Of a DNA stretch of 64,000 nucleotides, positions 32,529 through 59,058 are shown in pieces. Each line of letters opens with the position of its first letter. Positions within the stretch are counted from its first letter, which is position 1. Under the pieces are notes generated by a model that was not told where the DNA came from, made no database searches, and saw only the letters and a program-made list of their open reading frames with translations. This DNA is from Polytrichum commune. Its lineage: Eukaryota > Streptophyta > Polytrichopsida > Polytrichales > Polytrichaceae. The translations under genes and the position numbers were made by a program. Location: assembly GCA_950295325.1 (NCBI GenBank), contig OX485809.1, positions 18,926,144 through 18,990,143 on the forward strand. The letters are read 5' to 3'.

Positions 32529-32536
32529 CTTGGGCA

Positions 32537-32625
32537 CAGGGTTGTCTATCGCGACGTCATGACGGTGTCGTGCCGTCATGTCAGGTCGTGTCGTGACGGA
32601 CCCCTCCGTCACGACACAATAGGGT
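32537..32625 (+). repeat. hAT left TIR and subterminal repeats
   Basis: TIR CAGGGTTGTCTAT, then GTCATGACGG, GTCGTGCCGTCATG, GTCGTGTCGTGACGG and CCGTCACGACAC. Such clustered short motifs are typical hAT transposase-binding sites. Confidence 0.8.
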
Positions 32626-32809
32626 CCACGTAGGGTCAACATAGGGGGAATGGACTAGGGTGGGTAAAATACTTACCTTCTTGCCAAGGTGGCGTCCTAT
32701 GTGGCAGAAAACGCCGACGTGGATGTGCATATTTCCCTTGCCAAGTAAACCATTTTGCCATTGTGTTTAGGGTTCTGTTAAAATCAAAGTAGAAAAATAT
32801 GACTAAGGA

Positions 32810-33665
32810 GGGTGTGGGGTGGACGGTGGGGCGGACGGGAGAGGGGGGTGGTGCGGACGGCGGAGGGGGGTGGTGCGGACGGCGGAGGGGGGTGGAGCGG
32901 ACGGACGGGGGGTGGTGCGGACGGACGGGGGGTGGAGCGGACGGGGGAGGGGGGTGGTGCGGACGGGGGAGGGGGGTGGAGCGGACGGGGGAGGGGGGTG
33001 GAGCGGACGGTGGAGGGGGTGGAGCGGACGGACGGGGGTGGAGCGGACGGGGGAGGGGGTGGAGAGGACGGTGGAGGGGGTGGAGTGGACGGGGGTGGGG
33101 CGGAAGGGGGTTGGGAACGGGAGGGAGAACGCTGGAGCGGACGGGGGAACGCGGGGGCGGACGGGGGGAACGCGGAGGGCTCCGTCCGCCCCAAGTTCCC
33201 TCACGTCCGCCCCACGTTCCCCTGCCGTGCGTTCACGTTCCCACACATTTCCTAACGTCCGCACCCGTTCCCTACCGCGTTCCCCCCAGTCCGCACCCGT
33301 TCCCTCCCGTCCGCGCCCGTTCCCCCCCAGTCCGCACCCGTTCCCTTCCCGTCCGCCCACGTTCCCTTCCCGTCCGCCCCACGTTCCCTCCCGTCCGCCC
33401 CATGTTCCCTCCCGTCCGCGCTACGTTCCCCTCCCGTCCGCCCACGTTCCCCTCCCGTCCGCCCACGTTCCCTCCCGTCCGCCCCATGTTCCCTCCCGTC
33501 CGCCCCATGTTCCCTCCCGTCCGCGCTACGTTCCCCTCCCGTCCGCCCCATGTTCCCGCACGTTCCCTCCCGTCCGCGCTCCGTTCCCTTCCGTCCGCCC
33601 GAGTTCCCCTACGTCCGCCCCCTCGTTCCCTCCGTCCGCCCCCGCGTTCCCACGTTCCCCATACG
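32810..33665. repeat. G/C-rich array D1 upstream of the hAT kinase-like gene
   Basis: First part (to about 33170) is GCGGACGGGGGAGGGGGTG-type units; second part (from about 33180) is inverted, CGTCCGCCC[CA]ATGTTCCCT units of about 20-21 bp. The switch in strand makes it a large imperfect inverted repeat. Long frames here (up to 480 codons) are translations of the repeat, not genes. Confidence 0.85.
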
Positions 33666-33727
33666 TCCTTTTCGTGCCCCATGTCAAATCCGACCGGGAT
33701 CCCATAATGATTGTGCTCCCCTTTGCC

Positions 33728-33736
33728 TATATAAAG
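33728..33736 (+). promoter_or_regulatory. TATA box of the hAT kinase-like gene
   Basis: TATATAAAG lies about 60 bp after array D1 and 225 bp before the start codon at 33961. Confidence 0.6.
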
Positions 33737-33960
33737 CCGTGGGGTTTTAGTTCCCCTCACTTTCCTCTCCTCCCACCACAAAGGGACCCGAGACCTTGTT
33801 GCCGTCCCAAGGACAGCGGCACCGCGCGGGTCTCAGGGGGTTTGGGAGGGCAGGGCAAATTGTGGGGGAACCCTCGCAATTTTTTTTCCAGATTCACGCA
33901 CTCATTTCTACATTCACTCACTCCTTTTTACATTCACTCACTCACGCGGTTTTTTTCACG

Positions 33961-35877
33961 ATGGAGGGGGAGGACATTGCTCCTTACCAAGACGAGGATA
34001 CGAGGCTGCACCGTGCTTGGCTCCAAAGCACTCCACTTGCGCATACTGGAGAGGGTACGGGAAGCGAGGCCGGAAGTGGAAGCACTGCAGCACGTCCCCC
34101 ACGTCCAGATCCTTTTCGGTTTGACGAAGAGTTCTTTGCAGTTGGCCATTCAGGAGGCAACCAAACACGTGGAAGCCGTGGAACACGTGGGAGTCGGGGA
34201 AACAGTGGACATAGAGGGAGAACAGGAAGGGGACCAAGCTCAGGCAGTTCCACCGATATAAATGCAGCCACTCATGGAGAGTCCGTGCCACCACGATCTC
34301 CGACACGGCGGACATCAAGACCGGAGAGCCCTGCACGTGATGTACCTCAGGGTTCAGAGCATGGTGAAAGACGGGGACAAAAACGCCCAGCAATTTCGGA
34401 AGGGATGGAGGAGGGGTCCGGGGTTTCAGGTTCGCAATCGAGGAAAAGGAAAAATAGAGGCAAACGCGACCCGCGGATCGATGAGGCTCGAAACCATTGT
34501 AGGGTCGTGCTGTTGGAGTGGTTTAGAAATAACAGCATGGTTTATTTGGAAAAAAAATACCTCAATGATGGTACAAAGGGGTTGGATTTGGTGAGGAACG
34601 ATTTGATTCTTATTCTCACGGAAGCCACGGCTGGAGCGGAGTTTGAAGATGCTAGGGGCATGAGCGATTGGGGCACCTGGATTGAACAACAAGCCGTGGA
34701 AGCAATCTACAATCCAACAATGGCATATGATGCTGTGCATCCTAGCGAGGGAAGTAGTAGTGGCAGGAAGTCCGAGCTGTACATGAAGCTAGAGAATTGG
34801 AAAAGAGGCGTAATAGCAGCAAAAGGAACATCCGCCCGCAACCTTCCCATTTTTATTGACAGGCAGATGGCAGACAACATTGCCACTCAGGGCCGGCAGG
34901 GTGTCATATGGTTGCCTAGGAATGCGGAGATCAAAGCCTTGGATAAGGAAATCTTCCAAGGGACCTTCGGAGTGGTGCGGAGAGTCGCAATTCATGGAGC
35001 ATCATTCATCCCTAGCTGGATAGAGTGGGCTGGGAAGACCATGAAGGCCACGAATAGTTTGGAGAATCGAAATGAACGTTCAGTTGAAGCATTGGCGTGT
35101 CCAGTAGATCATCCTGGGGTAATCAAGCTACAATACCTCAATATGAAAACATACGAATCCTATTCGATGTGGTGGAATGGAGGCTCCTTGAAAAACATGA
35201 GGATCTATGACTTCAGCGTTCCGGAAACCCACGAGCGCACAATCCTTCACATGCCTGGGGCAGACTTTGAAGCACGGAAACGGTTGGTTGTATATCGAAG
35301 GCATCGAGCTTATTTGGCATGGGCTCTAATGTGCATTGTGGATGTAGTGCACAAGCATGACGTGTTGCACAATGACCTTAATCCCAACAATGTCATGCTG
35401 CATTTCCCACAAGACCGTGAGAACACGGTTTACATTGGTGTGTGTGATTGGGGCATGGCATCCTGGGGAGGTGAAGACGCACCCTCCAACTATGGAAAAG
35501 ATTCAGTGGATGAGATGAACAAGCACAAAGCAAAATACAACTGTGCTGGTCCAGAATTATTCCATGTACGAGGGCAGCGTGGAACATCCACCTCTCCGGT
35601 GAGGATGGCTCGGAAACATAGGCACACGTTTCTATCGGAGTCCTTTTCAGTGGGTGCTTTGGCAAAGAAGATTTATGCCAGGGATGCGACTTCCCCCTTG
35701 TTTCAGCTAAACAGTGATCCAAATGGCTTGAATATGCGGTTTGAGTTAGCATTGGATTCATTGACGAAGACCAATCCAGCGGAAAGGTCAACCATCACAC
35801 ACGTAGTGAACATTTTGAAGTCCCCTCCATACAACATGGTTAACCCGACAATGTGCTTCCGTGACACTGCAAAATAG
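33961..35877 (+). CDS. hAT-borne protein-kinase-like protein
   Basis: 638 codons from ATG 33961; this start is chosen because it follows the TATA box and CACTCACTC-rich leader, whereas the open frame upstream is repeat. N-terminal ~190 residues are disordered and Arg/Gly-rich with a basic nuclear-type stretch (S-R-K-R-K-N-R-G-K-R). A helical domain follows, then kinase motifs: G-T-F-G-V-V (about residue 334), A-G-K (VAIK equivalent), catalytic H-N-D-L-N-P-N-N (Asp about 472) and C-D-W-G for DFG (Asp about 496). HRD lacks Arg, DFG is DWG. It is the same family as the MULE-borne gene at 10032-11529. Ends TAG with AATAAAG at 35940. Substrate unknown; the frame is intact. Confidence 0.75.
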   Translation: MEGEDIAPYQDEDTRLHRAWLQSTPLAHTGEGTGSEAGSGSTAARPPRPDPFRFDEEFFAVGHSGGNQTRGSRGTRGSRGNSGHRGRTGRGPSSGSSTDINAATHGESVPPRSPTRRTSRPESPARDVPQGSEHGERRGQKRPAISEGMEEGSGVSGSQSRKRKNRGKRDPRIDEARNHCRVVLLEWFRNNSMVYLEKKYLNDGTKGLDLVRNDLILILTEATAGAEFEDARGMSDWGTWIEQQAVEAIYNPTMAYDAVHPSEGSSSGRKSELYMKLENWKRGVIAAKGTSARNLPIFIDRQMADNIATQGRQGVIWLPRNAEIKALDKEIFQGTFGVVRRVAIHGASFIPSWIEWAGKTMKATNSLENRNERSVEALACPVDHPGVIKLQYLNMKTYESYSMWWNGGSLKNMRIYDFSVPETHERTILHMPGADFEARKRLVVYRRHRAYLAWALMCIVDVVHKHDVLHNDLNPNNVMLHFPQDRENTVYIGVCDWGMASWGGEDAPSNYGKDSVDEMNKHKAKYNCAGPELFHVRGQRGTSTSPVRMARKHRHTFLSESFSVGALAKKIYARDATSPLFQLNSDPNGLNMRFELALDSLTKTNPAERSTITHVVNILKSPPYNMVNPTMCFRDTAK

Positions 35878-37053
35878 ATTTTTTTTGTTTTTTTTGCAAC
35901 AATTTTGAATCATACCAATTTTGTAACCGTTGGAGATGTAAATAAAGCCATCATTTTTTCATACAAAACTTGTATATTGTATGAGGTTTATGGATCTTAG
36001 TGCAATGCTCATACTACTCCATGAGGCCTTTGCTCCATAATCGAGAAGAAGTCTATGGGAGGCTAACCAAGGTTCTCGCCTCTCGTGAGGCCACATCCTT
36101 CTTTCACATCATTGTTATCACATCCATGTGCTAAGTTCAAGTTAACTATAGTTGTTTGTGATATGTCTTGAAAAAATGCAGTTACCTATATTTATTCTAA
36201 TTTTGGTATGCCACAAAATGTAGTAAACTATAGTTATATCTAGTTAACTAAAGTTGAGCACAATATTGCAATAGTTATATCGGTTGTACACGTGATCCAA
36301 AACATCTCTAAATGTTATCTTTCTTCTACTCCCCACATATTGCACACTATAAATGTTAAACGTGTTAACAGTTAACAAAATGGTACTCCCTTCTTTGTAA
36401 ATCTGACTCTATAAACGTTAACGGATGAAATACAACCATAATATGGATGATAAAAACTACACATCCAGTTACATTGATTCATATTCACTCGTGATTTGTA
36501 AACTTGATATTGAATAAAGTTTTGATTGGGTGTGCAATTTTATGAATGGTATTCTCTCACAAGGAATCTTCACAATTGCTTATATTTATATTTATATAAT
36601 TCACAATCACTTTTTTTTGGAAGTTTGGACATATTCTTGGCCGTCCAAGTTGAGAGGCCGTGCGATTGAGTGGCCCAACTTTGTTGATAGTCCAAAGAAA
36701 TGAACTGAAAATAGCCAAGAAAATATAGTAAGGGTAGCCTTAGTTGGGCATAGTGTGAAGCCTCCAAAGGCCAAGCGCAAAGTCCAAACCTTTGGCCATG
36801 AACTCCCACGGCCTCTCGGCTTGGATGGCCAAAGTGTGAAGCCTCCAAAGGCCAATCCCAAAGTCCAAACTCAAAGGAGCATGCCACTTTATTCCTTGCT
36901 CAAAATAACCCCTCCAATCTAACGGCCAAGATCTTGTCAATGATTGATTATTTTAATGAAAAAAAAGTTCGGCCTCTCGACGGAAGTTTGGGTTGAGCAT
37001 TTTGCTATACCCAATCTTTGCTCGAGAGGCCGAACTCTTGGCGCCATAACTTC
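35878..37053. other. Non-coding hAT interior, with GGCCTCTCG inverted repeats
   Basis: No gene. Repeated GTGAAGCCTCCAAAGGCCAA phrases at about 36760 and 36836. A perfect 14-bp inverted repeat GTTCGGCCTCTCGA (36967-36980)/TCGAGAGGCCGAAC (37022-37035) spans a 41-bp loop. Confidence 0.5.
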
Positions 37054-37560
37054 CTAAAAGTGTTGCCACCTAGGCTCTTTTGGAGGCCACGTCCTTTGGA
37101 CTTCGGCCTCTAGTGTGAAGGCCGAGAGGACGGACTTTGGGCATTTCAGCATTTTCATTGGTCCAAATGTTGAACCTCTTAAAGTTTGGCCATATTGTGA
37201 ACCGGCCCTTATATTTGCAATACATGTCTTATTCTTTTTTTGGCACAAATTGAAAATACAACCAACCCAGCCGAAACAGCGCAGCCTAAGTGGAAATCTA
37301 GAAATAATGCTCATTTGAGGCCTATCCTTCCAAGTAGGGACTAAGTTGCTACGGGTCACAATAAGACCTTTGACCCCCCAAATCAAATCAAATTTGTTAA
37401 GAATGTCATGGTAGGCCACGTCCGGGGCTTTTTCCAAGTCCCTAAGCATCTGTTTCCATTCAATCCTCCCATACTCTGATTTGTAATACATGTCATAAAA
37501 GCTAATGCAATTATTGTTTTGAAGTCTACCATCAAATGATATGTAAGATCGTATGTTCAC
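37054..37560 (-). pseudogene. Open frame of unknown function, perhaps a gene fragment
   Basis: 168 codons. The 5' part (to about 37270) has ordinary amino-acid composition (W-K-Q-M-L-R-D-L-E-K-A, Y-H-D-I-L-N-K-F-D-L-I-W). The 3' part reads through the GGCCTCTCG repeat zone. No start context, no introns and no family recognised; could be a remnant of another transposon. Confidence 0.25.
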
Positions 37561-40500
37561 TTGTGGTTGGTTCTTTTTATGTACCAGTTTAAGCCAATAC
37601 TAAAATAAAATAAACCTTATTCTATAAAATCTAATGACACTACCATACAAGTTAGTAGAGATGTTGTATATTTTTTTAAATTATTCTATATATTTACATA
37701 ACTACAACTTATAATTTTGTGAAGAATAATACATAATACAACAAAGTTCAAATCAATACCTCTTTTGTGCACTCACATATACTCATACGGATTTAGTATA
37801 GTGCACCCCCCCCCCAAATGATCACTAATGTGGGCCACATTAAAGTTAAGCCCACACCAAATCCCTAGTTTAATATCAATGTGGACCATATTAATTTGCT
37901 TTTCTAGAATGTTCTAATTTGTGTAAGGTGTTTGTAGATAGGATTTTTACTTGGGTTCCAATTAAGAAAACCACACAGGGAAGACTAAATGAGTGTCAGA
38001 TGTTATATCTAGGGATCACCATTAAGTTAATTGATAGATCATAAAGGATTTAGAATGACTTTAGGACAACATGCTTACGTGAATTGGCCTTTAAAATGTG
38101 CTTTAATTATTATTATAAGGGGGATTAAGGGTCACTCATAGCAGTACATGCAATTGCACAGTCTCTCCCTTACAACCCACTCTCAACAGTACATCACTCT
38201 TATCATGTGTTTTGCAATGCAGGGAGTCACAGCTCATCCATAGACATTTGGTTACACCATAGCCTTAGAAACCCCAAGGACATAATTCCTTCTAATTTCC
38301 ATAGTCTCTTCAAGTAAGTAACCAAGTTCCATAAGCCATACCACAGGTTAGTAAGTATCACACTTACCCATGACTTCCCTCCTATCAAGTAAAGGAACTA
38401 ATTTATTTATTTTAATGTTTCAAAATTAAATGAATATTTGGTTCTTTTAGACTTAGCAAGGTCAAATAACATTTTAACATATTAAAAGTAATTATGTTAA
38501 CTTGCAAAAGTCTAGTTACAAGTGACGGGAACCTAGTGAGCGTCTGAGTGAACGGAACCGGACCTAAGTGAAAGCGACTACCCCCAAGACCATAGACTAC
38601 ACGGCACGACCATAGTCTTAGTAACCATCCATAGTCTTAAGTCACAAGTTCCAAGTATCAAGTCTTCAACGGCAAGTCCATAGTCTAATTCCAAGTCCCA
38701 AGTCACCAGTTCCAAGTAAGCGTCAAGATCTCGAAAGTAGCTCAAGTCCCTTCTCCTTATATGCTTGCCCTCCTAAACTCGCCCAAACGATATGGGATAA
38801 AGGTGCCACGCTTCTCGCGCTCACAACTCCCTCTTTCGCAGACTCGCCGCGGACTAAAACTCATCCTTTTCTCCCGCAGACGGCTCGTATTCGCCCGGTT
38901 GCGGTGCAGGTTAAATTCCTCTTCCTTTTCTTCAAGGTGGTAACAGATTGCCGTAGTTTATCAAGTCCTCATTGCTACAAACTTCTGAATTTCTCTCCAG
39001 GCAGTAGATTCGGCATTTACTTCAGAAATGATTTCCACTGATCTCTTGCTTTTAGCTGCTGAATTTCCACACTGGGGTTTCCTTCCTATTGAGACTTAAG
39101 CTCTAATCATCCACAACAAAATAACTACGACATTTTTGACCATGAGAGAACGGAGCATCACTTTCTGAAATGAATTCCTACACTCAATGGCTTCACAGAA
39201 TTGTTGCTGGGACACTGCAAACAGAAAAAGGTTACTTCAAGTTTTCATACTTCCATAGCTTGGCCGAATTTCAATCTTCCTTCGACATGAACATTGCTCA
39301 TTTCAACTAATTCTACAAACTTATTTATCAGGCTTGTAATCTCTTGATTAACTTTGTAGAATTCTAACATCAAATGGACCATGTGAGATTTCGGATTTCT
39401 TGTTCCATTCAACAACATAAAGGAGCCTTGGAGAATTGAAGATGATTAAACTGCTTCACACAGTTTAACCTCATACGCACGCCAGACAATGACAAATGAA
39501 ATTCGCTCCTTTCACAAGTTTTTAATTTATACTTGCACCTTTAGAGGAATTTTCCACAGAGATGACAAGTTGATTCTCAAAAGTCTATCCTGAATTCCCA
39601 TCAGATAGAGTAAGGCTAATCCAGCCAGCCCACATGGCCGAACACACACATAAAGAATGAACTTCACATTCACTCTATTATGACATAATAAGTTCCCAAT
39701 TCGGGCTTACATATTGATTACAGGTTTCACACCCTCAAGTTCTTTCATAATTATTCCCCAATAAGATTGCAGTACAAGTACGATTCTTGATCTCTCCGAG
39801 AGGATCACTATAACTTTCCTTACCAAATTCACACAAATAAATGATATAGTTACCCACAGTGAAATCTCACATTCCACTTGTAAGTTATAGTCAAGAGTAA
39901 GAATGTTGGGATTGGGACACCACAAATGATCCACACAGTGTCACCCCTAACACATCCTTACAACAGTAAGTCACAATTGAGAAGGTAAGAATGCAGTAAT
40001 TTCATTCAGAGTTTCACACTCCTTTACATAACTTTCAGCAATGAAGAGCACACAACAATTATCTTACTCCCTTCACAGGAGAAAGGTAATACAACTGCTT
40101 TCCCGATTCTTCACGAACCAGAAAATGATGCTTTGACTTAATTGATTCACAACAACAACACAAACAACACATCACAATTTCGATTCACTCACACACAGTT
40201 GATAAGACAGCTTCACGCTGTAATACTATATTAAGAAGAGTAAGATGTACATCACAAAGGGCTTCACACCTAAGCAAAAAACACTCAAAAAAACGACAAA
40301 GCAAGGGAAGCTCTCTTCTCGAGAGGAACTCCTCCCTTCCTTTTTTTTTTCTCCTGTATACTCCTGAACTATTCCCTGTCTCTTAAGATCCGATATCAGC
40401 AGGTTTCCACTTAATCACATGTCCAAAAGTCACTTCCCCTCTCAAAATCTGAGTCATTGAACTAAATGGTCACTTTATATCTATTTCCACTAATTGCTCA

Positions 40501-40927
40501 CTAATCACGTACATACATGTTCATTTCACATTCTGATTGAGCAACTAGGTTTACATTCTATCAAATTTCAGAAATGACCATTTCAAGACAAAAAATATGC
40601 ACGACAGTGTTGGTAAGATATCTTTATGAAGCCTATAGGAACTCGGGGGATGCACTCTACATTATGTTTGAGAATCACGTGCGTTCATGACCCCTTCTAA
40701 AACCCCAATGTATACCATAAGTTATATGTCTAAGTAGAGATTGTGCCAACTTGAAGTAGTCCTCGCGATTTGCGAACGTTTAACATTCGTTGTAGGCATC
40801 GTAAAAAAAAGCGGGTGGGTTCGTTGGAAAGCTGGGAACCTAAACCCTCAAACCATGTATGGAAACACTTCTACATGAGTGAGAGAACAAAACAACGGCA
40901 CATATGTGGTAGCAATTTGGAATGACG
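37561..40927. other. Non-coding hAT interior
   Basis: No frame over about 75 codons and no recognised element ends. 38600-38730 has many CCAAGT/CATAGTC words. A poly-C tract is at 37806-37815. This may be decayed LTR or other insertion sequence, but I see no boundaries. Confidence 0.4.
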
Positions 40928-40950
40928 TAGGGTTTAGGGTTTAGGGTTTA
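40928..40950 (+). repeat. Interstitial plant telomere repeat (TTTAGGG)3
   Basis: TAGGGTTTAGGGTTTAGGG lies inside the hAT element, directly abutting the 81-bp tandem repeat. Confidence 0.7.
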
Positions 40951-41250
40951 TGAACCACAAAGGTTGAAGCACAAATATGTGAATTGTCGAATGAAAGGGC
41001 AAGGGGATGCGTGTGGGTTGTGAAACCATACGAACCACTACGGTTGAAGCTCAAATATGTGAATTGTTGCATGAAGATGGCATTCGGATGCCTAATATGC
41101 GTTGTGAAACCATATGGACCACAAAGGTTGAAGCACAAATATGTACTTTGTTGAATTAATATGACATTCGAATGCGTGTGGGTTGTGAAACTATACAAAC
41201 CACTAAGGTTGAAGCTCAAATATGTGAATTGTTGAATGAAAGGACAACCC
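40949..41250. repeat. ~81-bp tandem repeat, about 3.7 units
   Basis: Units begin near 40949, 41029, 41113 and 41194 with GAACCACAAAGGTTGAAGC-like sequence, followed by ACAAATATGTGAATTGTTG and GGTTGTGAAACCATA. A 113-codon minus-strand frame is only the repeat translated. Confidence 0.8.
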
Positions 41251-41496
41251 ATCAAATATAGAAGCTTCAAAGAGGTTTCCAATGCGGGTATCGGGGGACT
41301 TTTTCAAAAAGTGCAACTAACTTTTTGACTTCACCAACTTTCTTTTTATTCCTATTGTGTTGTCTTTATCCTACCAACGAGAATTGGATCCTCTACATCT
41401 TGGATTACATCAAATATTGTATATTTCATAAAGTCCTTTGAGCTCAATATATAAGTAGAGCATTTAGACTCATACATATAACGAGGGTAGAGTATC

Positions 41497-42057: not shown

Positions 42058-42519
42058 CGGAAGTCAAGTTGACGGAATGAAGTGGAATATTAAATCGTGC
42101 ATGGTTTGTTCATGTATGTGATTTATAAAGGGCATTTGTACCGTCGTCGCAATAATAAAGTCATTACTTGTACATCGTTGTCTCCAGAGGGGTGATAATT
42201 TGTTGGTCATCATACTACATTGGTTACTTTGTTGCTTGAGGGATCCTTCATTAGTTTTGTGTGGATAAGTACACCGGTAATGATATTTAGTGTCACATAT
42301 ATTATTTGCAAAGGGCCTAAGTTAGATGGGGTGCGGATGGGGGGACGCGGGAATGTGCAGTAGAAATATTATTGCATATTCATGTAGAGGACTTCATTAC
42401 CTATCCATGGATACCAAGAAATCATTTTTTGGACTTCATATGAATTTTTGAGAGCCAAAAAACCGAGACTATGTCCAAACTTCCAAAAAAAATTAAAAAG
42501 TGCAGATTCAAAGGAACTC

Positions 42520-43112
42520 GGGAGCGGACGTATGGGAACGCTAGAGCGGACGCAGGGGAACTCTAAAGCGGACGTAGGGGAACATGGGGCGGACTTATAG
42601 GAACGTTGGAGCGGACGTAAGGGAACATGGAGTGGACGGGGGGGAGCGGAAGGGGGGGGGGCGGGTTGGAGCGGATGGGGGGAACGCGGGAGCGGACTGA
42701 GGGGAGCGGACGTAGGGAACGAGGGGGCGGACGTAGGGAACGAGGGAGCGGACTGAGGGGAGCGGACGTAGGGAACGAGGGGGCGGACGTTTGGGAACGG
42801 GTGCGGACGGGGGCGGGAACGGGTGCGGAGTGGGGGGAACGCGGGCGCGGACTGGTAGGGAACGGGTGCGGACTGGAGGGGAACGCGGGGGGCGGACGTA
42901 GGGGAACGAGTGCGGACGGGGGCGGGAACAGGTGCGGACTGGGAGGGGAACGGGTAGGGACTGGAGGGGAACGCGGGGGGCGGACGTAGGGGAACGAGTG
43001 CGGACGGGGGCGGGAACGGGTGCGGACTGGGAGGGGAACGGGCGCGGACTGGGAGGGGAACGGGCGCGGACGGGAATGAACGGGTGCGAACAGGGTGGGA
43101 ACGGGGAGCGGA
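42520..43112. repeat. G/C-rich array D2 upstream of the RING-finger gene
   Basis: Units such as GGAACG[CA]GGGGGCGGACGTAG and GGGAACGGGTGCGGACTGG repeat for ~600 bp. The vocabulary (GCGGACG, GGGAACG) is the same as arrays D1 and D3. Confidence 0.85.
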
Positions 43113-43120
43113 TGGAGGGG

Positions 43121-43128
43121 TATATAAG
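43121..43128 (+). promoter_or_regulatory. TATA box of the RING-finger gene
   Basis: TATATAAG follows array D2 within 10 bp. Transcription would run towards 43553-45855. Confidence 0.55.
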
Positions 43129-43659
43129 TGGAGGGGACCACTTACATACCCCACTCCACTCCTTGTGGGCGCCCGGACGACCCTCCTTTACTACAGAGTG
43201 CGGGGTTTAGCGGGGTGCTCGGAGGAGTTAAGGATCCCTTTTTGGGGATCCTTTTATACTTTTTTTACTGACCTGTTTGTGGGTGTGATCCACGTGGACC
43301 CGTTCCCTTGTGCCTTTTTGGCATATTCCTTGTGACGCGCCCAGTCAACTGGCCTCTGCGTGAGCGCTGGTAGCGGGGTGCTCGAAGGGTGTGCTGAATT
43401 TTTGTACTTTAATTTTTAACGACATTTTTAAACTAATTCCACATCAACACTATTTTGAAGTGTATGCTTGGATGTTTTGTAGCACTATTATGAAGTGCAG
43501 TTAGTAATTTAAAAATTAAAGTTCTAGATTAGAATTAGAAACTACAATTTGGGTGGATCCGGTAAGTGAAGGATTTCCAGACATGGCAAGTGGAGGATCT
43601 GGAGACATGGCAAGTGGGGATCAGGTTGTCACAGATCACATGTACGCAAGGCCGCTGGG

Positions 43660-45855
43660 TTGGAGTGGGATGTTTATGATGACAACACCCAAAAAGCCAG
43701 GGCAGGTTGGGAGAATGTACCACAACCGTGGTCAGTGAAGACTGCAATGCAGTACGTGGGCTTCCCTCACTTTGATCAGTTGTGGCCAAGACCTTGTCAC
43801 GAGCGACACTGCAAGGCCATCAGTGCGAGTTATATGCAGCTTGATGACGTGGAGGCAAAATGGAGATTCCTAACGATACTTAGAAGTATCTCCAATTTGG
43901 ATAGATGGCCCAAGAGTGCAATTCCAAAGTCGGTGGCGTGTATGATGTATGCGGAGCACGTGTTGCGAGTTAGGGTGGATTGGTCAAGTTTGGCTACCCT
44001 GCATGGTCAAAAATTTGGGGGTATTGGAATTGCATTCACTAAATGCACAGTTCCAGATATTCCATACACTCCCGTTCCGGAGTGGTTCAGGAGGAATCCT
44101 CGACTAGTGGACGAGCCTGGGGCCCCAATTCCAGAGGGTCGGGAACCAAAAAAGCCACGTAATCGTAAACGACCAGCCAATGACGTGGAGATGGCCATCG
44201 AGGAGGCGTTTGAGCATATGGATGAGGGCATGGAGGCAAATGTCGAGGTCAACAACCTGATCAACGACGTGGTTAACGAGGTCCTAGACGAGGTAAACCT
44301 TGGTGAACATGGAGCGGACCCGACGGAGAGCAGAATGGAGGAATTGCGTAAGCAACATGCGTTGGAAATTCGTGAATATAAAACGATGATTTTCGAGTTG
44401 GAAAATCGAGTTGCAACACTTACGATGGGGGAGGCTAGCAATTCAAGTAGTACACCAATTAACCTTCAGTCTTTGGAAGCAGAGAGGGACGCAACTTTAC
44501 AGGAGGCCAAGATTGCAAAGTCACAAGTTCTGGAGGTATGTATGAGGAATGAAGTAATGCGAGGAAAGATGGAGGCTTTGCAAAAGGAGGTGATGGACAT
44601 GCAACAACAACTTCAAGTGGTCAATGAAGTGGTTGTTGATCACGAAGCCAAGATTGGCGGACTGGAAGAGCAGAATGCAAGGTTGAAGAAATTTCTGTTG
44701 GATGCGATTGTGGAGCGCAAAAATATGAGGACAAGCACATTGTTTGCTATGGCCAAGGCTCATCAATTTGAAGCTGAGTTTGAGAGCATCCAGAAAGAAT
44801 GGAACCGCAATCAGAGAATGCGGAATATGATGCTCACGTCATGGCCAGAAGATGAGCAAATGTACCCTAGTAGGTAGGATAGGGATAATGAGTGGACATT
44901 GCCAAGCGGGAGCATCGATTGGCGTCAAGTGACCGACCCAGATCACCATTGGGATGTGACCCAAGTGCATGAATATCCATTCCGCATGAGGGGTGAGTTG
45001 TTATGGCCAAATCCACATACAATGGTCTTCGACGGAACCGCATGTGCGATTTGCCAATGTCCATTTGGCCCAGAGGGATGCTATCAAGTTGGATCATGTG
45101 GGGCCCAATTCCATCCACAATGTCTAATAGGGAATATGATCAAGAAACGCCAATGTCCTCATTGCAGATCACCCTTCCACCCTCGTTTGTACCTCCAATT
45201 TGGCCTTCGGGATTACATGCCTAACGACTGGGTATTAAAGCCATGGGACTTTCCCTTCGATCTTCAAGAGTTTGATGGGGAGAATGTTGAGTGGAGTTGG
45301 TTATACAATTGTGCCAAGGTTGAGCTATAGCACGAGAACAGAGATGACGACTGGACACGGAATGCACGTCAAATTTTGTATGTTGCAGACGAGTTGTATC
45401 CCAACAAGCCCCCCGATCATGGCTTGAAAAGATTTTTGTACCAAACTCTTGAATGGCATTGGGATTCAACCAGCAGACAATTAAAGAGAGGCATTCATCC
45501 TCCTTGGTACAATGTAGCAGGTCTCGAATCAGTATCGGAGCATGATTTGGAAGAAGATGCAGATGACATGCCTACGGAACGGGATCCGAGATATGAATTG
45601 CAGTTAGAGGTGGGGTACCACAAGAACATGCTGCAGTTGGCTGCAATTGATGCACTCTTGCATAGAGTTACGGATGATGTGGTATTGAGATGGCTAAATG
45701 GTGGGCCTAGACCACGTAATGCCGTTCCATTGTCTCCTGGTAGTCGTCCATACCTCACCCGTGGAACAACGCGAAGCATGGAAGCGGGGGAATCATCACG
45801 AGCACGACGAGGATCTACTTCAGCTAGAATAGACCTCGATTCAGATTCGGATTAG
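43660..45855 (+). pseudogene. hAT-borne coiled-coil and RING-finger gene with two in-frame TAG codons
   Basis: One frame runs about 730 codons, interrupted only by TAG 44875-44877 and TAG 45328-45330. Segment 1: conserved-looking N-terminus, acidic helices, then a long coiled coil (about 44330-44830). Segment 2: C3HC4 RING finger C-A-I-C ... C-G-A-Q-F-H-P-Q-C ... C-P-H-C (45040-45170), as in E3 ubiquitin ligases. Segment 3: helical region and acidic tail D-L-D-S-D-S-D. The N-terminus probably lies upstream: frame 2 from ATG 43585 has donor-like CCGGTAAGTG at 43559 nearby, so splicing is unresolved. It could be two or three genes, but the shared frame and lack of start sites favour one gene with nonsense codons. 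Confidence 0.55.
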
Positions 45856-46554
45856 GCATTTTTGTACCATGTTTAGGAAGTTGTATAGGAACGGATGAAA
45901 ACTTTGGACACAATGAACATATTTCATGTTCAAAGTATATGTAATATAAAGAGGATTTACCGACAAGTTGTCATTTCTAAGATCGTGTAAAAGATAACAT
46001 ATGGATGCCACATGTTTTAATGTTATTTGAAACTTTTAAAAACTTACTTGAATATTAGTAATTCATATGATAGTCTAACCAAAAGTACTATTGACTCCAT
46101 AGTCAATATTGAATACCACATAAAGATATAATTATATAAAACGGATAGAAAGGTCCTCAAAAAGAGGATGTCACCAACGGAGCATGTACAATCGAGCAAT
46201 AGGGGATTGCAATATTTATAAAAGCATATTCTTTAAGAAGCTCAATAAATAAACATAAAACTCCATTCACAGTAAGAATTATACAAAATAGTAATTAATA
46301 AAGACATAACATGTTATTGGAGATTAATTGCAATGCTAAGTTGACAACCATATTGTATTTTAAAAATTTTAAAAAACATGCAATAAATAATTTTATTACT
46401 ATAATAAAATGTTACAACTTCGAAGGTAACGTTCGCTTTGTGGTCTAAATGTCTTACCGAAGGCCCTAAGGTTGTAACTTGTATCAATTTTGACGTAAGT
46501 AATAAATTATGGGAGTACGTGGGAGCACCGAAATACCACATTTGTACAAAACCA
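45856..46554. other. Intergenic region between convergent hAT genes
   Basis: AT-rich 3' flanks of the RING gene (plus) and the transposase (minus). No gene seen. Confidence 0.5.
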
Positions 46555-49500
46555 TTACGTTCGAATCCGTACTGTGGGATCATTTGCTTCGACACATCTT
46601 GGGTCCTCTTCAGACTCGTCTGTGTTGCAATCATCATCCGTTTGGGGAGTCGCGCTCCGAAGATGCAACTCTCGGTCACGTTGTGAGAAAATTATCTTCT
46701 TGGTCGGCCGGGAGCCCTCTGCATCCTGTATGTCATTTTCATCTAGATGTGGTCTACCCTCATCTTCATTGTAGTCTTCAGTTGTAAACGGAAGCGATCT
46801 TCCCTGATACCTCTTCCTAGTACGTTTGACACCTCTCGTAGTTCTCTGACGCCCTCCACCCGTACCACGACTTGAGTGCACTTCATCTCTACTTCCATCT
46901 ATAAAAACATCCCCCGTTGTACTTCTGCCTCCAACTCCAAGGCCACATGTTCCATTGGATTGACTGTGTGGAAGTGAAACTGATGCGGATGGAATTGCAA
47001 TTGGTATGTTCTCAACAACATGTCGACGAACAGAATGACGACGTGGCGCCTCTATAGTAACATTTCTTGAAACATTGTGTATAGCAACCAAAGTAGCACC
47101 CACCGCAGTTGCACGTGAAACACCCAATCTAGAAGTATTGGCAATACTTCGAGTGAGAGGACGACGTTGACCTTGTGCATGCACTTGCACCGTAGAGGTT
47201 GATGCAGTTCTTTGAAGAGCACGGAATCGAGTTGTAGGTATTTTAGGAACATTGGGCGTTTGATCTTCTATACGATGGTTGGATATGAGGGAGGCGTCCA
47301 TGGATTCAGAATGTACTCGGGCTGGAAATGGATCCTGTTGAACGTGCATTGGCTCATTTGCGGGTAGTACATTGTCACCTTCACCAAAAGAAAGATAATC
47401 GCTCCAAGGTTGCAAGGAATCTACTTCAATTCTTACATTCTCACTTGCCCCCATAGCAACATTATGGGCAGGGCGAAACCCTTGTCCAATGTGGAGAGTT
47501 TCAAAAGGCGGTCCTCCAATAGACCCCTCATGATCGTCATGCATTCCGTCGTTATGTTGGGGGACATCCAGTTCATCAAAATCAAACACCCCAAGGTTTC
47601 CATCACTACCATTGTCATCCTCATCTTCTGAATCATGATTCTCGGAATTGAGGTCATCCAAATCAAAGTCGATGTCATCAACATTGTTGTCATCATCATT
47701 TCCGGCACTATCATTTGGATCCACGTCATCTTCGTTGTCATCTTCTTCGTCAAGGTCATCGTCAGAATGGACCTCATTCAATTCGTACCATTGCGCAGGT
47801 CTTGGGCCCCTCCGATGTCGAATGAGCCTACTATTGGTATATATGTAGACGAGGTCCTCGGCACGACTATGCTTCAAGCGATTGCGACTCTTGTGAACAT
47901 ATGAGTACATGCTCCAATTGCGTTCACATGCGGATGCGGAACATACTTGTGCAAGGATACGTCTTGCTATTGTTTGGAGGGCTTTAGCTCCACCTCCCAT
48001 TGCATCCCACCATTCATGGAGAGGTGCGGCATGCACGCTCGGGTCAGTAGAATCAGCAAAAGGCCCTCGATTTTCAAGGAAATCTTGGTACTGGTGGAGG
48101 ATTTGGACATAAGTGTCCTCATCTTGAGCAAGCCTGCGAAGAACTCGATTTAGGATTGTCCTCGAATTCTCATCCTCATGGAGTGGGGCCCAACCACGTA
48201 GAAGCGGATTTAACATCGCTCCAGCCCAATGTAGATCATTTAACATCAACCTCCATCTATTTTGAAACGTTAGCATAGCATTTGCAGCAAGCTCAGGGCT
48301 TAAGCGAAATGGAGGTTTACTGAATCCACGAATATGGGTTTGTAAATCATGCATGACCCTCCAAGCCATTCCCATTGCAGGCGCCTTGCCATCAAATACA
48401 CGAAGAGCTTTAACAACCGGGATCACCATATACAAGAAATTTTCGCACGTGTTCCAGAATCCATCATAACGTATAAAGCTTCGCACAGCAGAGCCCTTCA
48501 TGTAAGAGGTGCGAGATCTCCTCCTCATATCACGCATTAGAGTAGGCCAATCCTCATCAACCACCATTCTTTCCAAAGCATTGCGTACTTGAAGAAGACG
48601 ATCTATCATGATGAAGTTCGTTGCAAAACGGGTCTCTACAGGTAGGCGGAGTGAGAGATTTGGTGACAACCTCCGGAATATAGCTTGAGAAGCATGATGG
48701 TTTTTGATAAAAACACAAATATGGCGCGCCTTTTTTACCAACTTTTTCACCCATTCCTCCTTCCCCCAATCTTCTAAGAGGAGATCTAGGCAATGCGCAG
48801 CACATCCTTGAAAATATAGATCAGGATTTGCTTGAATCAAGTCGCGAGCAGCGGAGGCCATAACTGGGGCATTGTCGGTGCAAATCTGGACCACATTATG
48901 TCGACCAACCTTTTCCACAAATGGTTGAATTTGAGCAGCAACGTATACATGATCCTTGTGATTTCCCGTGGTATCAATGGTACCCAAGAAAACATCTCCC
49001 TTTGTGCCGCATTGGAGAACGTTTAGGAGAGGTCGGTTTTGCACGTTGTCCCATCCATCACAACATATTGTAACACCGTATTTTTCAACGGAATTCCCCA
49101 TCTTCTCCTTCACTTGCCTATCTAGGTCAACCTTTTTATCAGTTAACAACTTCGTACGGATGGCATTGTACGATGGTGGTGTGTAGGCTGGCATTCGATG
49201 ACGGGCAGTTTCACGCACAGCATGAACAAATGCAGGATGTCTCACAATGTTGAAAGGAATGTTAGCTTCATAAAAAGCCGTTGCCCATGCTCTGTCAAGG
49301 AGTTGTTTTGTTGACACATTGAACCCCTCCGTTATGTTGAGTTGACGTAGTTCACGAGGAGGTGTGCCATATATCACAACATCAGAATGTTGAGTGGATT
49401 GGGACATAAGCAAAGGCTCTGTTTCACTAATTACGGAGTCCGCTATAATAGGCTCCAGAGGTACAATATCTGGCACCGGAGAGTCCTCATTTACAATGCC

Positions 49501-49749
49501 TACATGTAAGGGCACAATGCCTCCGCAATGTTCAAACAAGACCCTAATATGCGGGGGTACCATCCTACATGTGGAAACATCACAAGCACCCCCTACAGGA
49601 GGTCTATAACCAAGGTGGGCCAACATTCTATTTCCTCGGTAAGATATGACGAACGGGCAAAACCTACATTTAACCTGCCTTTGTGATTTACCGGGAACCA
49701 TCCCCTTATCCTCGTACCAATGATCCCATGCATCATTTCGGCGTGGCAT
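46555..49749 (-). CDS. hAT transposase, 1,064 codons
   Basis: Start ATG 49749 (M-P-R-R-N-D), just after a TTTGCAG acceptor-like site. Domains: BED-type zinc finger near residues 8-50 (C-R-F-C at 28-31); a DUF659-like/RNase-H-fold core with C-C-D-G-W, C-T-D-N-A-P-V-M and G-C-A-A-H-C-L-D-L-L; C-terminal hAT dimerisation region with L-A-Q-V-C-S-A-S-A-C-E-R-N-W-S (residues about 610-690). A long extra tail follows: Asp/Glu-rich, then Ser-rich, then a basic R-G-V-K-R-T-R-K-R patch (likely nuclear signal). The tail makes it longer than most plant hAT transposases (about 600-800). The frame is intact, so the element may be autonomous. Expected to bind the GTCGTGACGG subterminal repeats. Confidence 0.9.
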   Translation of the reverse strand: MPRRNDAWDHWYEDKGMVPGKSQRQVKCRFCPFVISYRGNRMLAHLGYRPPVGGACDVSTCRMVPPHIRVLFEHCGGIVPLHVGIVNEDSPVPDIVPLEPIIADSVISETEPLLMSQSTQHSDVVIYGTPPRELRQLNITEGFNVSTKQLLDRAWATAFYEANIPFNIVRHPAFVHAVRETARHRMPAYTPPSYNAIRTKLLTDKKVDLDRQVKEKMGNSVEKYGVTICCDGWDNVQNRPLLNVLQCGTKGDVFLGTIDTTGNHKDHVYVAAQIQPFVEKVGRHNVVQICTDNAPVMASAARDLIQANPDLYFQGCAAHCLDLLLEDWGKEEWVKKLVKKARHICVFIKNHHASQAIFRRLSPNLSLRLPVETRFATNFIMIDRLLQVRNALERMVVDEDWPTLMRDMRRRSRTSYMKGSAVRSFIRYDGFWNTCENFLYMVIPVVKALRVFDGKAPAMGMAWRVMHDLQTHIRGFSKPPFRLSPELAANAMLTFQNRWRLMLNDLHWAGAMLNPLLRGWAPLHEDENSRTILNRVLRRLAQDEDTYVQILHQYQDFLENRGPFADSTDPSVHAAPLHEWWDAMGGGAKALQTIARRILAQVCSASACERNWSMYSYVHKSRNRLKHSRAEDLVYIYTNSRLIRHRRGPRPAQWYELNEVHSDDDLDEEDDNEDDVDPNDSAGNDDDNNVDDIDFDLDDLNSENHDSEDEDDNGSDGNLGVFDFDELDVPQHNDGMHDDHEGSIGGPPFETLHIGQGFRPAHNVAMGASENVRIEVDSLQPWSDYLSFGEGDNVLPANEPMHVQQDPFPARVHSESMDASLISNHRIEDQTPNVPKIPTTRFRALQRTASTSTVQVHAQGQRRPLTRSIANTSRLGVSRATAVGATLVAIHNVSRNVTIEAPRRHSVRRHVVENIPIAIPSASVSLPHSQSNGTCGLGVGGRSTTGDVFIDGSRDEVHSSRGTGGGRQRTTRGVKRTRKRYQGRSLPFTTEDYNEDEGRPHLDENDIQDAEGSRPTKKIIFSQRDRELHLRSATPQTDDDCNTDESEEDPRCVEANDPTVRIRT

Positions 49750-49979
49750 GACTTCAACAAAACCTGCAAATACAAACAAGTTAGAGCAAGTAACTTTGAT
49801 CGCATACTAGGTCCTATTCAAGAGTGCCACAAGGGCAACCCTAATTCACAGTCACTAGATTGGACAAAGTATCCTCTGCATTCGGGTCTCACGCATTCAA
49901 TCCTCACTCCTCAAAGGAGAATCAAAAGACTTGAGACACACTATGTCAGTGGAGGCAAAAATGGCACCTTGAACCCTCA

Positions 49980-49986
49980 ATTTATA
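49980..49986 (-). promoter_or_regulatory. TATA box of the hAT transposase gene
   Basis: TATAAAT on the minus strand, 11 bp downstream of array D3 and 231 bp before the ATG. Confidence 0.55.
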
Positions 49987-49996
49987 GTATTCGAAT

Positions 49997-50310
49997 CGGA
50001 CGGGGGAGCGGACGGAAGGGGGGGGGGGGGGGGGAGCGGACGGGGAGCGGACGGAGGGGGGGGAGCGGACGAGGGAGCGGACGGACGGGGGAGCGGACGG
50101 ACGGGGGGGAGCGGACGGGGGGGCGGACGGAGGGGGGTGGAGCGGACGGGGGAGGGGGGGGGGGCGGACGGGGGAGCGGACGGACGGGGGGGGGGGGGCG
50201 GACGGGGTTGGGAACGGGAGCGGACGGGGGGGAACGGTGGCGAACGGGGATTGTGAACGGGAGCGGACGGGGGTTGGGAACGGAGGCGGACGGGGGGGCG
50301 GACGGGCTCT
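49997..50310. repeat. G/C-rich array D3 upstream of the hAT transposase gene
   Basis: GGGGGGAGCGGACGG and GGAACGGGAGCGGACGGGG units. Same words as arrays D1 and D2, placed immediately upstream of the transposase TATA box. Confidence 0.85.
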
Positions 50311-50454
50311 AGTAAATTTTTCCCCACTTTACCTTTACTTTGCTGACATGTCATCACACGTGGACATTGTAAATCCTACGTGTCAGAAATGGGTTAATGT
50401 AATTACACAAAAAAATCGGTAAAATTCAAGTCCGTCAGGATAAAGACAGCATCC

Positions 50455-50539
50455 GGCATAATGTCGTGACGGATACGTGTCGTGACGGCACGACATTATG
50501 TCGGGATTACCCTCCGTCATGACACAATAGACAACCCTG
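50455..50539 (-). repeat. hAT right TIR and subterminal repeats
   Basis: Contains ATGTCGTGACGG, GTGTCGTGACGGCACGAC, CCGTCATGACACAATAG and the terminal ATAGACAACCCTG; the same words as the left end in inverted order. Confidence 0.8.
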
Positions 50540-51487
50540 CTTGGGCATCATGCAGACGGTCTGCCTATCCCACTTCACGTTGTTCATGAGGTTATTAATC
50601 TGCCACTTCACCCCTCCGCTTTCACGAGACCTCACCACCCACTTGTTAGGAGATTTCTCGCACTTGAAACAATCCACGTTGAAAGTGAAGTGGCGTCCCA
50701 TAGGCCAGCAATCCTTGGAGTAGTTGTTGAAGTCTCGAAGGATTTTTGTCGCTTTGGCAGCGTCTGGGTTTTCTCCCTTCTTCAAAGGGGTTGGCATCAC
50801 TGGCGGAGAACTAACCTCAGCGCCTTCCGTCAATCCGGACTTCTCCATCTCGTCCCTCGACCTCTTGGATGGAGTGGATTGTCTGCTGGGCCCTTCTGTC
50901 AACCTGCTCCCCGAAGGCACAGGCCGCGGAGCACTTCTCGATCCTCCTGCCCCCGAAGCAGCTGGTTTTTTCGGACTTTTCTTTTTTTTATTTGCCTCCG
51001 CGGCAACACTGTTGTACTTCGAAACATTCAAGGTCAGGGCAGTCAACTTCCTCGCCGTCCAGTGTTGACTCAGGGCATATTTGGTGAAGAGAGCATCCAG
51101 ATTGAAATGTTTCGCATCGGATGCGACATTATTGCATGCATAAGCATAAGAGAATGGGTGCAATAGGTAGTTTAAGAGGAGGTTCACATGGTCTTTTTTA
51201 TTTTTCATATCCAGAATAACAAAGTCTTCTTGTGCCTCTGCGGATTCTATCTCCCAATTCTTTGTCTGCACCCATTGGTCTGGTTGGTCAGCCCTTGTCT
51301 GCAGCTCATAAGTGAATCGCAATGCAAACAACCCTTCCTCGGTCTTCGTGGGGATGGCCGTCCACTCAGCCATGAATTCTTCTTTTGGGACATAGTTGTC
51401 GTTCCCATTGGTATCCGAGACGCCCTCTGGAAGGCGCTCCACTGGCACTGCGAACAAGTCGATGGCGTTTCTGCTAGCTTTAGCCAT
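50540..51487 (-). pseudogene. Gene B exon 1, 5' part, cut off by the hAT insertion
   Basis: 316 codons from M-A-K-A-S-R (51487) to M-P-K at the TSD. The ATG follows GTGATGCAG, so it may be a true start or an internal exon; ATGs at 51493 and 51496 are in the same frame. Contains a mixed alpha/beta region, a basic Lys/Ser/Pro linker (K-K-K-K-S-P-K-K, probable nuclear signal) and a Cys-containing segment (F-K-C-E-K-S-P). The frame is intact up to the insertion, and 948 nt is a whole number of codons. Confidence 0.7.
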
Positions 51488-59053: not shown

Positions 59054-59058
59054 ATGTC

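What the first reader, a model, noticed from the sequence alone, without database searches (positions are those of the whole stretch)
32529..50547. An 18-kb hAT element with cargo genes, with exact TIRs and TSD, splitting a long gene in frame
CTTGGGCA duplicates at 32529-32536 and 50540-50547, TIR CAGGGTTGTCTAT, and the host codons M-P-K|G-F-L-S read on in phase 0 when the element and one TSD copy are left out. The transposase frame is intact. hAT elements of 18 kb carrying a kinase-like gene, a RING/coiled-coil gene and a further gene are not a form I know.
Basis: seen in the sequence. Interest (0 to 1): 0.9.

Follow-up and report, generated by a model that had tools for sequence, protein, structure and literature searches.

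The report
Giant hAT transposon with kinase, RING genes
In a plant genome, probably a moss, we find a family of unusually large "jumping genes" (about 16 kb; this copy is 18 kb) that carry, besides the enzyme that moves them, a kinase-like gene and a ubiquitin-ligase-like gene; both show signs of selection for function, although the second is broken in this copy, which suggests that the element uses host-style signalling enzymes for its own spread.

Summary
Confirmed and extended. Window 32537-50539 is one copy of a high-copy hAT family: exact 13-bp TIRs, exact 8-bp TSD, DUF659 + Dimer_Tnp_hAT transposase. The uninterrupted target site occurs elsewhere in the genome (40 places scored, 5 identical to the joined flanks). 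Of 25 copies whose two ends I read, 21 have exact 8-bp TSDs. Four other full copies are 15.6-15.9 kb; this copy is longer through a nested 2.7-kb TG...CA insertion.

The cargo is two genes, not three: a kinase-like gene and a coiled-coil/RING-H2 gene. The "further gene" is the 3' part of the RING gene, which two stop codons break in this copy. Transposase (88 loci), kinase (90) and RING gene (96) travel together: 81 of 88 transposase loci have a cargo gene within 12 kb, against 0-3 with shifted positions.

In a chosen sample, variants shared between copies show purifying selection on both cargo genes (omega-like 0.43 and 0.35), as on the transposase (0.50). Private variants look neutral in kinase and transposase (about 1.0), less so in the RING gene (0.73). 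So they behave as element genes, not passive fragments.

Their function is inferred, not shown: best guess, anti-silencing or control of transposition.

The parts
32529..32536 (.). target site duplication, left copy (CTTGGGCA)
   Evidence: empty site with one copy found elsewhere
50540..50547 (.). target site duplication, right copy (CTTGGGCA)
32537..50539 (+). whole hAT element, 18,003 bp, written from the kinase end to the transposase end
   Evidence: four homologous full copies of 15.6-15.9 kb
32537..32549 (+). left TIR CAGGGTTGTCTAT
   Evidence: 38-bp left end found 196+203 times in G000 with up to 3 mismatches
50527..50539 (-). right TIR
   Evidence: 46-bp right end found 178+186 times with up to 3 mismatches
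32816..33660 (.). G/C-rich GCGGACG-type tandem array upstream of the kinase-like gene
33961..35877 (+). kinase-like gene (638 aa from ATG; frame open from 33751); motifs GxxGVV, AGK, HNDLxPxN, DWG, PELF
   Evidence: searches (Pkinase E=3.5e-6, below Pfam cut-off; ATG), alignment; selection
41497..42057 (+). 186-aa open frame of uncertain coding status
   Evidence: present in the related copies, but omega 0.80-0.93 against the divergent copy and stops in 2 of 6 copies
42520..43120 (.). GCGGACG-type array upstream of the coiled-coil/RING gene
43570..45855 (+). coiled-coil/RING gene, one frame of about 760 codons; in this copy interrupted by stops at codons 436 and 587
45043..45165 (+). RING-H2 motif (CAIC...CPHC) inside the frame
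   Evidence: read in the translation; zf-RING_2 E=2.9e-5 in an uninterrupted copy L038; RNF38 RING in PDB E=8.4e-5
46555..49749 (-). hAT transposase, 1,064 aa from ATG, DUF659 + C-terminal dimerisation domain
   Evidence: DUF659 2.9e-35; Dimer_Tnp_hAT 3.3e-8; ATG
49990..50300 (.). GCGGACG-type array upstream of the transposase gene
37933..40606 (.). nested insertion TG...CA, 2.67 kb, flanked by GTGTT; absent from the four other full copies compared
50548..51559 (-). 5' part of the interrupted repeat gene
   Evidence: 473-aa frame across the rejoined site; 40 scored uninterrupted relatives
32127..32536 (-). 3' part of the interrupted repeat gene

Best explanation
This is a probably recent insertion of a large, multi-gene, potentially autonomous hAT transposon family. 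Shown: termini, 8-bp TSD, empty sites, copy number, conserved gene set, and purifying selection in the sampled copies. Inferred from the superfamily: the DUF659-type hAT transposase binds repeats near the ends (four exact TCGTGACGG sites lie within 80 bp of the ends of this copy) and moves the element by cut-and-paste, and about 0.5-kb derivatives with the same ends are moved in trans. Inferred from anatomy: the kinase-like gene and the coiled-coil/RING gene are accessory genes of the element, each with a G-rich array near its 5' end. Their products probably act in trans on host or transposase proteins. I think the likeliest roles are counteracting host silencing (about 0.35) or regulating transposase activity and stability (about 0.3); the rest is open. 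The window copy has an open transposase and kinase frame but an interrupted RING gene, so if the RING product is needed at all, this copy would need it from another copy.
For: Ends and TSD. Exact 8-bp TSD in 21 of 25 copies read (window; 3 of 4; 17 of 20; control: 0 of 380 mismatched pairs with 7 or more bases alike). Two of the four failures carry reciprocally swapped TSDs, as expected after an inversion between two copies. Empty site: 40 scored places, 5 at 100%. Gene set: 42 of 43 transposase loci have the RING gene in the same geometry within 3 kb. In the merged lists 81 of 88 have RING gene and/or kinase within 12 kb (53 both) and 83 of 88 within 20 kb (55 both); transposase positions shifted by 0.2-1 Mb give 0-3 with either within 12 kb. 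Transposase and RING gene are convergent in 70 of 70 pairs closer than 3 kb. A divergent copy (C1:46.38 Mb) keeps the same genes in another order. Selection: shared variants omega-like kinase 0.43, transposase 0.50, RING gene 0.35; private variants 1.04, 1.05, 0.73; Fisher p 0.005, 0.003, 0.008. Four short elements are built of the two ends.
Against: No expression, excision or protein data. The RING gene has at least one stop at or after codon 201 in all 5 main-family elements read in full, window included, and 8 stop positions in it are shared by two or more of 20 copies, which argues against a strict need in cis. Some single pairs show no constraint or the reverse (kinase N-terminal part L022-sis 1.78; transposase parts L055-L056 1.40 and win-L069 2.64). 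The 186-aa frame shows no clear constraint. Kinase and RING scores stay below Pfam's cut-offs in the main family; in the divergent kinase the only match over a cut-off is APH (phosphotransferase family, 23.4 against 23.2 bits, a 37-residue stretch), so 'protein kinase' in the strict sense is not settled. No solved relative of kinase (E<=0.001) or transposase was found by sequence, and the kinase fold prediction failed (pLDDT 31.8). Five of 88 transposase loci have neither cargo gene listed within 20 kb. Nothing here links the cargo to silencing or to transposition directly.
Confidence: 0.87

Rival explanations
1. Passive gene capture: kinase and RING gene are host genes or fragments picked up by one element and amplified by hitch-hiking, without function for the element (Pack-type transduplication).
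For: Many copies of the RING gene carry stops. In this copy the RING gene is interrupted. Gene order and orientation differ between copies.
Against: Shared variants show purifying selection in both cargo genes at the level of the transposase. The same genes persist in a divergent copy whose proteins differ by 19-30%. I made no search aimed at a host parent gene; in the scored list for the second window kinase the next relatives after its own family are hAT kinases.
Confidence: 0.08
2. A composite or nested accident: the cargo belongs to another element that inserted into an ordinary hAT element, and amplification carried the compound along.
For: The window contains several multicopy gene sets, and a second kinase of the same broad type lies at 10441-11529. 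This copy has a real nested insertion.
Against: The arrangement is shared by most transposase loci and the cargo is constrained. I did not search for short internal TIR/TSD pairs around the cargo; inverted repeats of 25 bases or more in this copy, 25 longest of 37 shown, are mostly the G-rich arrays. An old compound origin remains possible and would not change the present state.
Confidence: 0.1
3. Assembly or chance artefact.
For: G-rich tandem arrays are hard to assemble and vary in length between copies.
Against: Exact TSDs at 21 of 25 copies on several chromosomes, intact empty sites, and reciprocal TSD swap at two copies.
Confidence: 0.01
4. A statement on function only: kinase and RING gene are anti-silencing factors in the sense of VANC of VANDAL elements or, as proposed, the TET/JBP dioxygenases of fungal transposons.
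For: Accessory genes of DNA transposons with such roles are known or proposed (PMC5735166, start of abstract in the listing; PMC12730594, passages and one section). Most stops in decayed copies are C-to-T or G-to-A changes, as expected if cytosines in these elements are methylated.
Against: In what I read, no kinase or RING protein is shown to do this for a transposon; the link is by analogy only.
Confidence: 0.35

Closest known systems
hAT superfamily DNA transposons (Ac, Tam3, Tol1, Tol2)
   Same: 8-bp TSD, short TIR beginning CAGGG (recalled for the family), transposase with hAT C-terminal dimerisation domain, short derivatives with the same ends
   Different: About 15.7 kb with two further constrained genes; Tol1 and Tol2 are 4.4 and 4.7 kb with a transposase (PMC10175614, passage seen)
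hAT7 and other TET/JBP-bearing fungal DNA transposons (Kojima 2025, PMC12730594)
   Same: A hAT-type transposase plus an accessory enzyme gene; accessory genes recur in unrelated transposon lineages
   Different: 7-bp TSD and a dioxygenase in rust fungi; here 8-bp TSD, kinase-like and RING gene in a plant
IS3EU elements with an alpha-kinase gene (PMC12730594)
   Same: A DNA transposon with a kinase gene, opposite in orientation to the transposase
   Different: Different transposase superfamily, 6-bp TSD, alpha-kinase; here Pfam matches Pkinase and, more weakly, APH
VANDAL (Mutator-like) elements with VANC
   Same: Plant DNA transposon with an extra gene that serves the element
   Different: Mutator-type element; VANC is a sequence-specific anti-silencing protein (abstracts in the listing); resemblance in sequence was not tested
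Starships
   Same: Large cargo-carrying transposons
   Different: Fungal (abstract start, PMC11623301), moved by a tyrosine recombinase and with variable cargo (recalled); here a small gene set recurs

Membership tests
hAT superfamily | 8-bp target site duplication | tested here: met
   21 of 25 copies exact; control 0 of 380
hAT superfamily | short TIR, CAGGG-type end (recalled) | tested here: met
hAT superfamily | transposase with hAT C-terminal dimerisation domain | tested here: met
   PF05699 E=3.3e-8, over cut-off; PF04937 DUF659 2.9e-35
hAT superfamily | catalytic D-D-E and conserved W, as in Hermes (recalled) | tested here: inconclusive
   CCDGW, CTDN and ACERNWS motifs read by eye against recalled hAT motifs; PDB search found no relative
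hAT superfamily | N-terminal BED zinc finger | tested here: inconclusive
   CRFC...H-type motif visible by eye; Pfam reported no zf-BED at E<=0.1
hAT7 (fungal) | 7-bp TSD | tested here: not met
   8 bp
hAT7 (fungal) | TET/JBP dioxygenase gene (not all hAT7 have it) | tested here: not met
   no such Pfam family in the ORFs scanned
IS3EU | IS3EU transposase with alpha-kinase gene | tested here: not met
   Pkinase/APH matches, no alpha-kinase; hAT transposase
Pack-type transduplicates | host gene fragments without selection for the element | tested here: not met
   purifying selection on shared variants in the sample; host parent not searched
VANDAL/VANC-like anti-silencing | accessory protein lifts silencing of the element | not testable with these tools
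   needs expression and methylation data
Starship | tyrosine recombinase captain (recalled) | tested here: not met
   no recombinase domain in the ORFs scanned; hAT transposase present

The most novel reading that the evidence does not exclude
A lineage of giant plant hAT elements has permanently taken over a kinase-like and a RING ubiquitin-ligase-like gene as a signalling module, expressed from similar G-rich promoter arrays, to overcome host silencing or license transposition. Related kinases sit in a second multicopy gene set with a DNA-methylase-like gene in the same genome, so a transposon-specific kinase family may have spread among different mobile elements.
Probability: 0.3. Interest if true: 0.82.

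Novelty: new variant of a known kind. Interest (0 to 1): 0.63.

Why it matters
The well-known hAT elements are small and code for little more than a transposase (Tol1 and Tol2, 4.4 and 4.7 kb, PMC10175614 passage; the generalisation is recalled). A young, high-copy family of about 16 kb whose kinase-like and RING genes show purifying selection suggests that a hAT lineage can depend on more than its transposase. It gives a concrete system, with many open transposase and kinase frames and about a thousand exact TIR ends, in which to ask what signalling enzymes do for a transposon: control of transposition, escape from silencing, or manipulation of the host. A related kinase recurs in another multicopy gene set of the same genome.

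Tried and rejected
Fold prediction of the kinase domain from the window sequence alone gave mean pLDDT 31.8 and was not used; no fold search was made. phmmer against the PDB found nothing for the kinase at E<=0.001 and one match at E=0.27, taken as chance, for the transposase. A scan of viral contigs with the kinase found no relative. Papers: among the rows listed in the searches I saw no paper describing a giant hAT element with kinase and RING gene. This covers only the open-licence library, only titles and starts of abstracts, and only part of the hits where many were found (12 of 25, 10 of 43, 10 of 530). Beyond listings I saw passages of PMC10175614, PMC6446971 and PMC12730594, and section 4.1 of the last.

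The 186-aa frame at 41497-42057 was considered as a further gene; with omega 0.80-0.93 against the divergent copy and stops in 2 of 6 copies I leave it open. The idea that the divergent copy has the same exact GCGGACG arrays was rejected: the motif occurs only 6 times there, although G-rich stretches do lie near the 5' ends of its three main genes.

Rows dropped before counts: 2 of 22 transposase copies (L058, L061) and 4 of 24 RING-gene copies (L041, L043, L044, L050), because of large gaps; none of 26 kinase copies; the first 33 codons of the RING frame were left out. The copies were chosen for spread, not at random: 26 of 90 kinase loci, 22 of 88 transposase loci, 24 of 96 RING-gene loci. 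In one search the kinase list leaves out rows that I took for the second kinase type, and rows at 25-33% identity were taken as hAT kinases without reading them. In one search only 33 of the 150 listed phosphatase rows, 13 loci of the second kinase and 12 of the methylase were typed in. The 25 copies tested for TSDs were those whose two ends could be paired from the listed rows; one of them (C1:24.63 Mb) was not known to carry cargo. All copy counts are lower bounds (capped scoring and listing).
Full report
WHAT WAS CLAIMED AND WHAT IS THERE. The two 8-bp duplicates CTTGGGCA and the 13-bp inverted ends CAGGGTTGTCTAT are at the stated coordinates, without mismatch. The window is G000:C7:18926144-18990143 of a 407.8-Mb genome. 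The exact 13-mer occurs 494 times forward and 515 times reverse; its backwards control occurs 0 and 1 times. Longer ends, allowing 3 mismatches, occur 399 times (left, 38 bp) and 364 times (right, 46 bp); their backwards controls occur 0 times.

EMPTY SITE. The two flanks joined with one TSD copy (278 bp) match 40 scored places (of 260 candidates), each over at least 273 bases, 5 of them at 100% identity. The rejoined frame is open for 473 aa. The insertion is therefore precise and probably young. The target is not a unique host gene but a gene of another repeat: a NIF-type phosphatase gene, present in this window at 27742-28443, has copies within 12 kb of at least 27 of the 40 empty sites (33 of 150 phosphatase rows used), and 150 copies of it were scored.

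SIZE AND STRUCTURE. Four other full copies are 15,635, 15,702, 15,740 and 15,945 bp and 98.4-98.7% identical to the window copy over about 15.1-15.2 kb of aligned bases. The window copy is 18,003 bp because it holds a 2.67-kb insertion at 37933-40606, starting TG and ending CA, flanked by GTGTT and absent from the other four; it looks like a solo LTR (inference). Of 25 copies whose two ends I read, 21 have exact 8-bp TSDs: the window copy, 3 of 4 and 17 of 20; among 380 mismatched pairs none had 7 or more matching bases. Of the four failures, the copies at C1:2.33 Mb and C1:2.52 Mb carry each other's TSDs in reverse complement, as expected after an inversion by recombination between two oppositely oriented copies. 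One pair (C1:24.63 Mb) has duplicates that are reverse complements of each other and may not be one element. One (C3:38.0 Mb) is unexplained.

GENES. The transposase (46555-49749, minus) has DUF659 (E=2.9e-35) and Dimer_Tnp_hAT (3.3e-8), both over Pfam's cut-offs. The kinase-like gene (33961-35877) matches Pkinase at E=3.5e-6, 4.7 bits below the cut-off, and APH at 6e-4, also below. In the divergent copy the kinase matches APH just over its cut-off (23.4 against 23.2 bits) on a 37-residue stretch and Pkinase below its cut-off. So membership of the protein-kinase-like superfamily is likely, but the class is not settled. The glycine loop, a lysine, HNDLxPxN, DWG and PELF are shared with the divergent copy, and most of these residues also with a second kinase in the window (motif names recalled). 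In the window copy it has two in-frame stops, at codons 436 and 587; in copy L038 it is open for 777 aa from the first listed start, a GTG, and holds a RING-H2 finger (zf-RING_2 E=2.9e-5, 2.6 bits below cut-off; nearest solved RING RNF38, E=8.4e-5). Its start codon is uncertain. A 186-aa frame at 41497-42057 is conserved in place, but constraint is not clear.

CARGO TRAVELS WITH THE TRANSPOSASE. Scored copies: transposase 43 of 310 candidates (96-100% identity; 31 of 43 without stops), kinase 64 of 304 (82-100%; 37 of 64 without stops), RING gene 105 rows, some of them pieces of one copy. Of the 43 transposase copies, 42 have the RING gene 0.2-2.9 kb away in the same geometry. Merging with 32, and 10 with 57, and joining pieces, gives 88 transposase, 90 kinase and 96 RING-gene loci. 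Within 12 kb of the 88 transposases, 53 have both, 24 only the RING gene, 4 only the kinase and 7 neither; within 20 kb the numbers are 55, 23, 5 and 5. With transposase positions shifted by 0.2, 0.5 or 1 Mb, 0 to 3 have either within 12 kb. Transposase and RING gene are convergent in 70 of 70 pairs closer than 3 kb. The nearest kinase lies on the opposite strand to the transposase in 33 of 57 cases and on the same strand in 24, so the arrangement has been reshuffled while the set was kept. A divergent copy at C1:46.38 Mb (RING gene 70%, kinase 78%, transposase 81% protein identity) has RING gene, transposase, 186-aa frame and kinase in that order between the same 13-bp ends.

SELECTION. I compared variants private to one copy with variants shared by two or more copies. 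Private variants: omega-like ratios of 1.04 (kinase, 26 copies), 1.05 (transposase, 20 copies) and 0.73 (RING gene, 20 copies). Shared variants: 0.43, 0.50 and 0.35 (Fisher p 0.005, 0.003, 0.008). The reading is decay after insertion and purifying selection while the lineage transposes, in the cargo as in the transposase. Pairwise, the kinase domain half (residues 301-638) has omega 0.37-0.45 in six of the eight pairs compared, and 0.65 and 0.67 in the other two; the first half has 0.57-0.68 in those six, and 0.65 and 1.78 in the other two. Transposase parts range from 0.22 to 0.71 in 14 of 16 comparisons, with 1.40 and 2.64 in two close pairs with few changes; RING-gene halves range from 0.37 to 0.63 in 10 comparisons. 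Against a strict need for the RING gene, stops at or after codon 201 are present in all 5 main-family elements read in full, and stops occur at 33 private and 8 shared positions in its 20 copies, against 9 and 1 in the kinase and 7 and 1 in the transposase (the RING-gene sample holds more divergent copies). So the RING gene is often lost; if it matters, it can act in trans.

ARRAYS AND ENDS. GCGGACG-type arrays lie upstream of the kinase, RING and transposase genes in the three main-family copies counted. In the divergent copy that exact motif is rare (6), but G-rich stretches again lie near the 5' ends of the same three genes despite the changed order. I read them as shared promoter-proximal elements (inference). 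Four exact TCGTGACGG sites lie within 80 bp of the ends of the window copy and could be transposase binding sites (inference from hAT biology). Four short elements of 526-613 bp consist largely of the two ends of the large element; two of the four have exact TSDs.

HOST. LEAFY-type domains are present (4 places; 0 of 14 control genomes), and the best PDB match of a LEAFY exon is 4bhk, recalled as the moss protein. Seven contigs hold 406.1 of 407.8 Mb (lengths). I infer a bryophyte, probably a moss; the species is not shown.

WHAT IT IS AND HOW IT WORKS. A member of the hAT superfamily by TSD, TIR and transposase, moving by cut-and-paste (inferred from the superfamily). It differs from the familiar hAT elements by its size and by two extra genes that show selection. 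Precedents for accessory genes exist: TET/JBP dioxygenases in hAT7 and other fungal transposons and alpha-kinases in IS3EU (PMC12730594, passages and one section seen), VANC in VANDAL elements (abstract starts in the listing). I therefore call it a new variant of a known kind. What kinase and RING gene do is not shown; anti-silencing and control of transposition are the leading ideas.

LIMITS. One genome, no expression data, a chosen sample for the selection test, counts that are lower bounds, and domain scores below curated cut-offs for both cargo genes in the main family.

Noticed in passing
window 10441-11529 and 14768-15724: A second kinase gene, 26% identical to the hAT kinase over the aligned region, and a DNA-methylase-like gene (N6_N4_Mtase E=2e-6) are repeated together: 12 of the 13 kinase loci typed in have the methylase within 6 kb. 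In the scored list the next relatives of this kinase after its own family are hAT kinases.
   Followed up: partly
window 27742-28443 and 18675-19406: NIF/CTD-type phosphatase genes; the first has 150 scored copies at 89-100% (143 without stops, of 1,263 candidates) and lies in the same repeat as the gene split by the hAT element.
   Followed up: partly
G000:C1:2330601-2366356 and C1:2520064-2532921: Two copies carry each other's TSDs in reverse complement: signature of an inversion of roughly 0.15-0.2 Mb by recombination between two copies.
   Followed up: partly
L013/L014, L055, L056 versus window copy: Synonymous divergence between subfamilies differs by gene and part (about 0.09 in the transposase front, 0.2 in the kinase, 0.37 in the RING-gene front), suggesting exchange of segments between subfamilies.
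   Followed up: no
window 59029-60900 and 61622-63241: Two DUF7869 genes, similar in sequence and on opposite strands.
   Followed up: no
genes of the five full elements and the divergent copy: Of 20 stop codons listed, 16 differ from the other copies by C-to-T or G-to-A changes, 2 more (RING frame codon 3) do so relative to one other copy, and 2 do not; deamination of methylated cytosine would give this.
   Followed up: no
G000:C1:21.87, 21.92 and 21.95 Mb: Copies with equal scores and the same stops, with neighbouring short elements at similar spacing, pointing to a recent segmental duplication.
   Followed up: no
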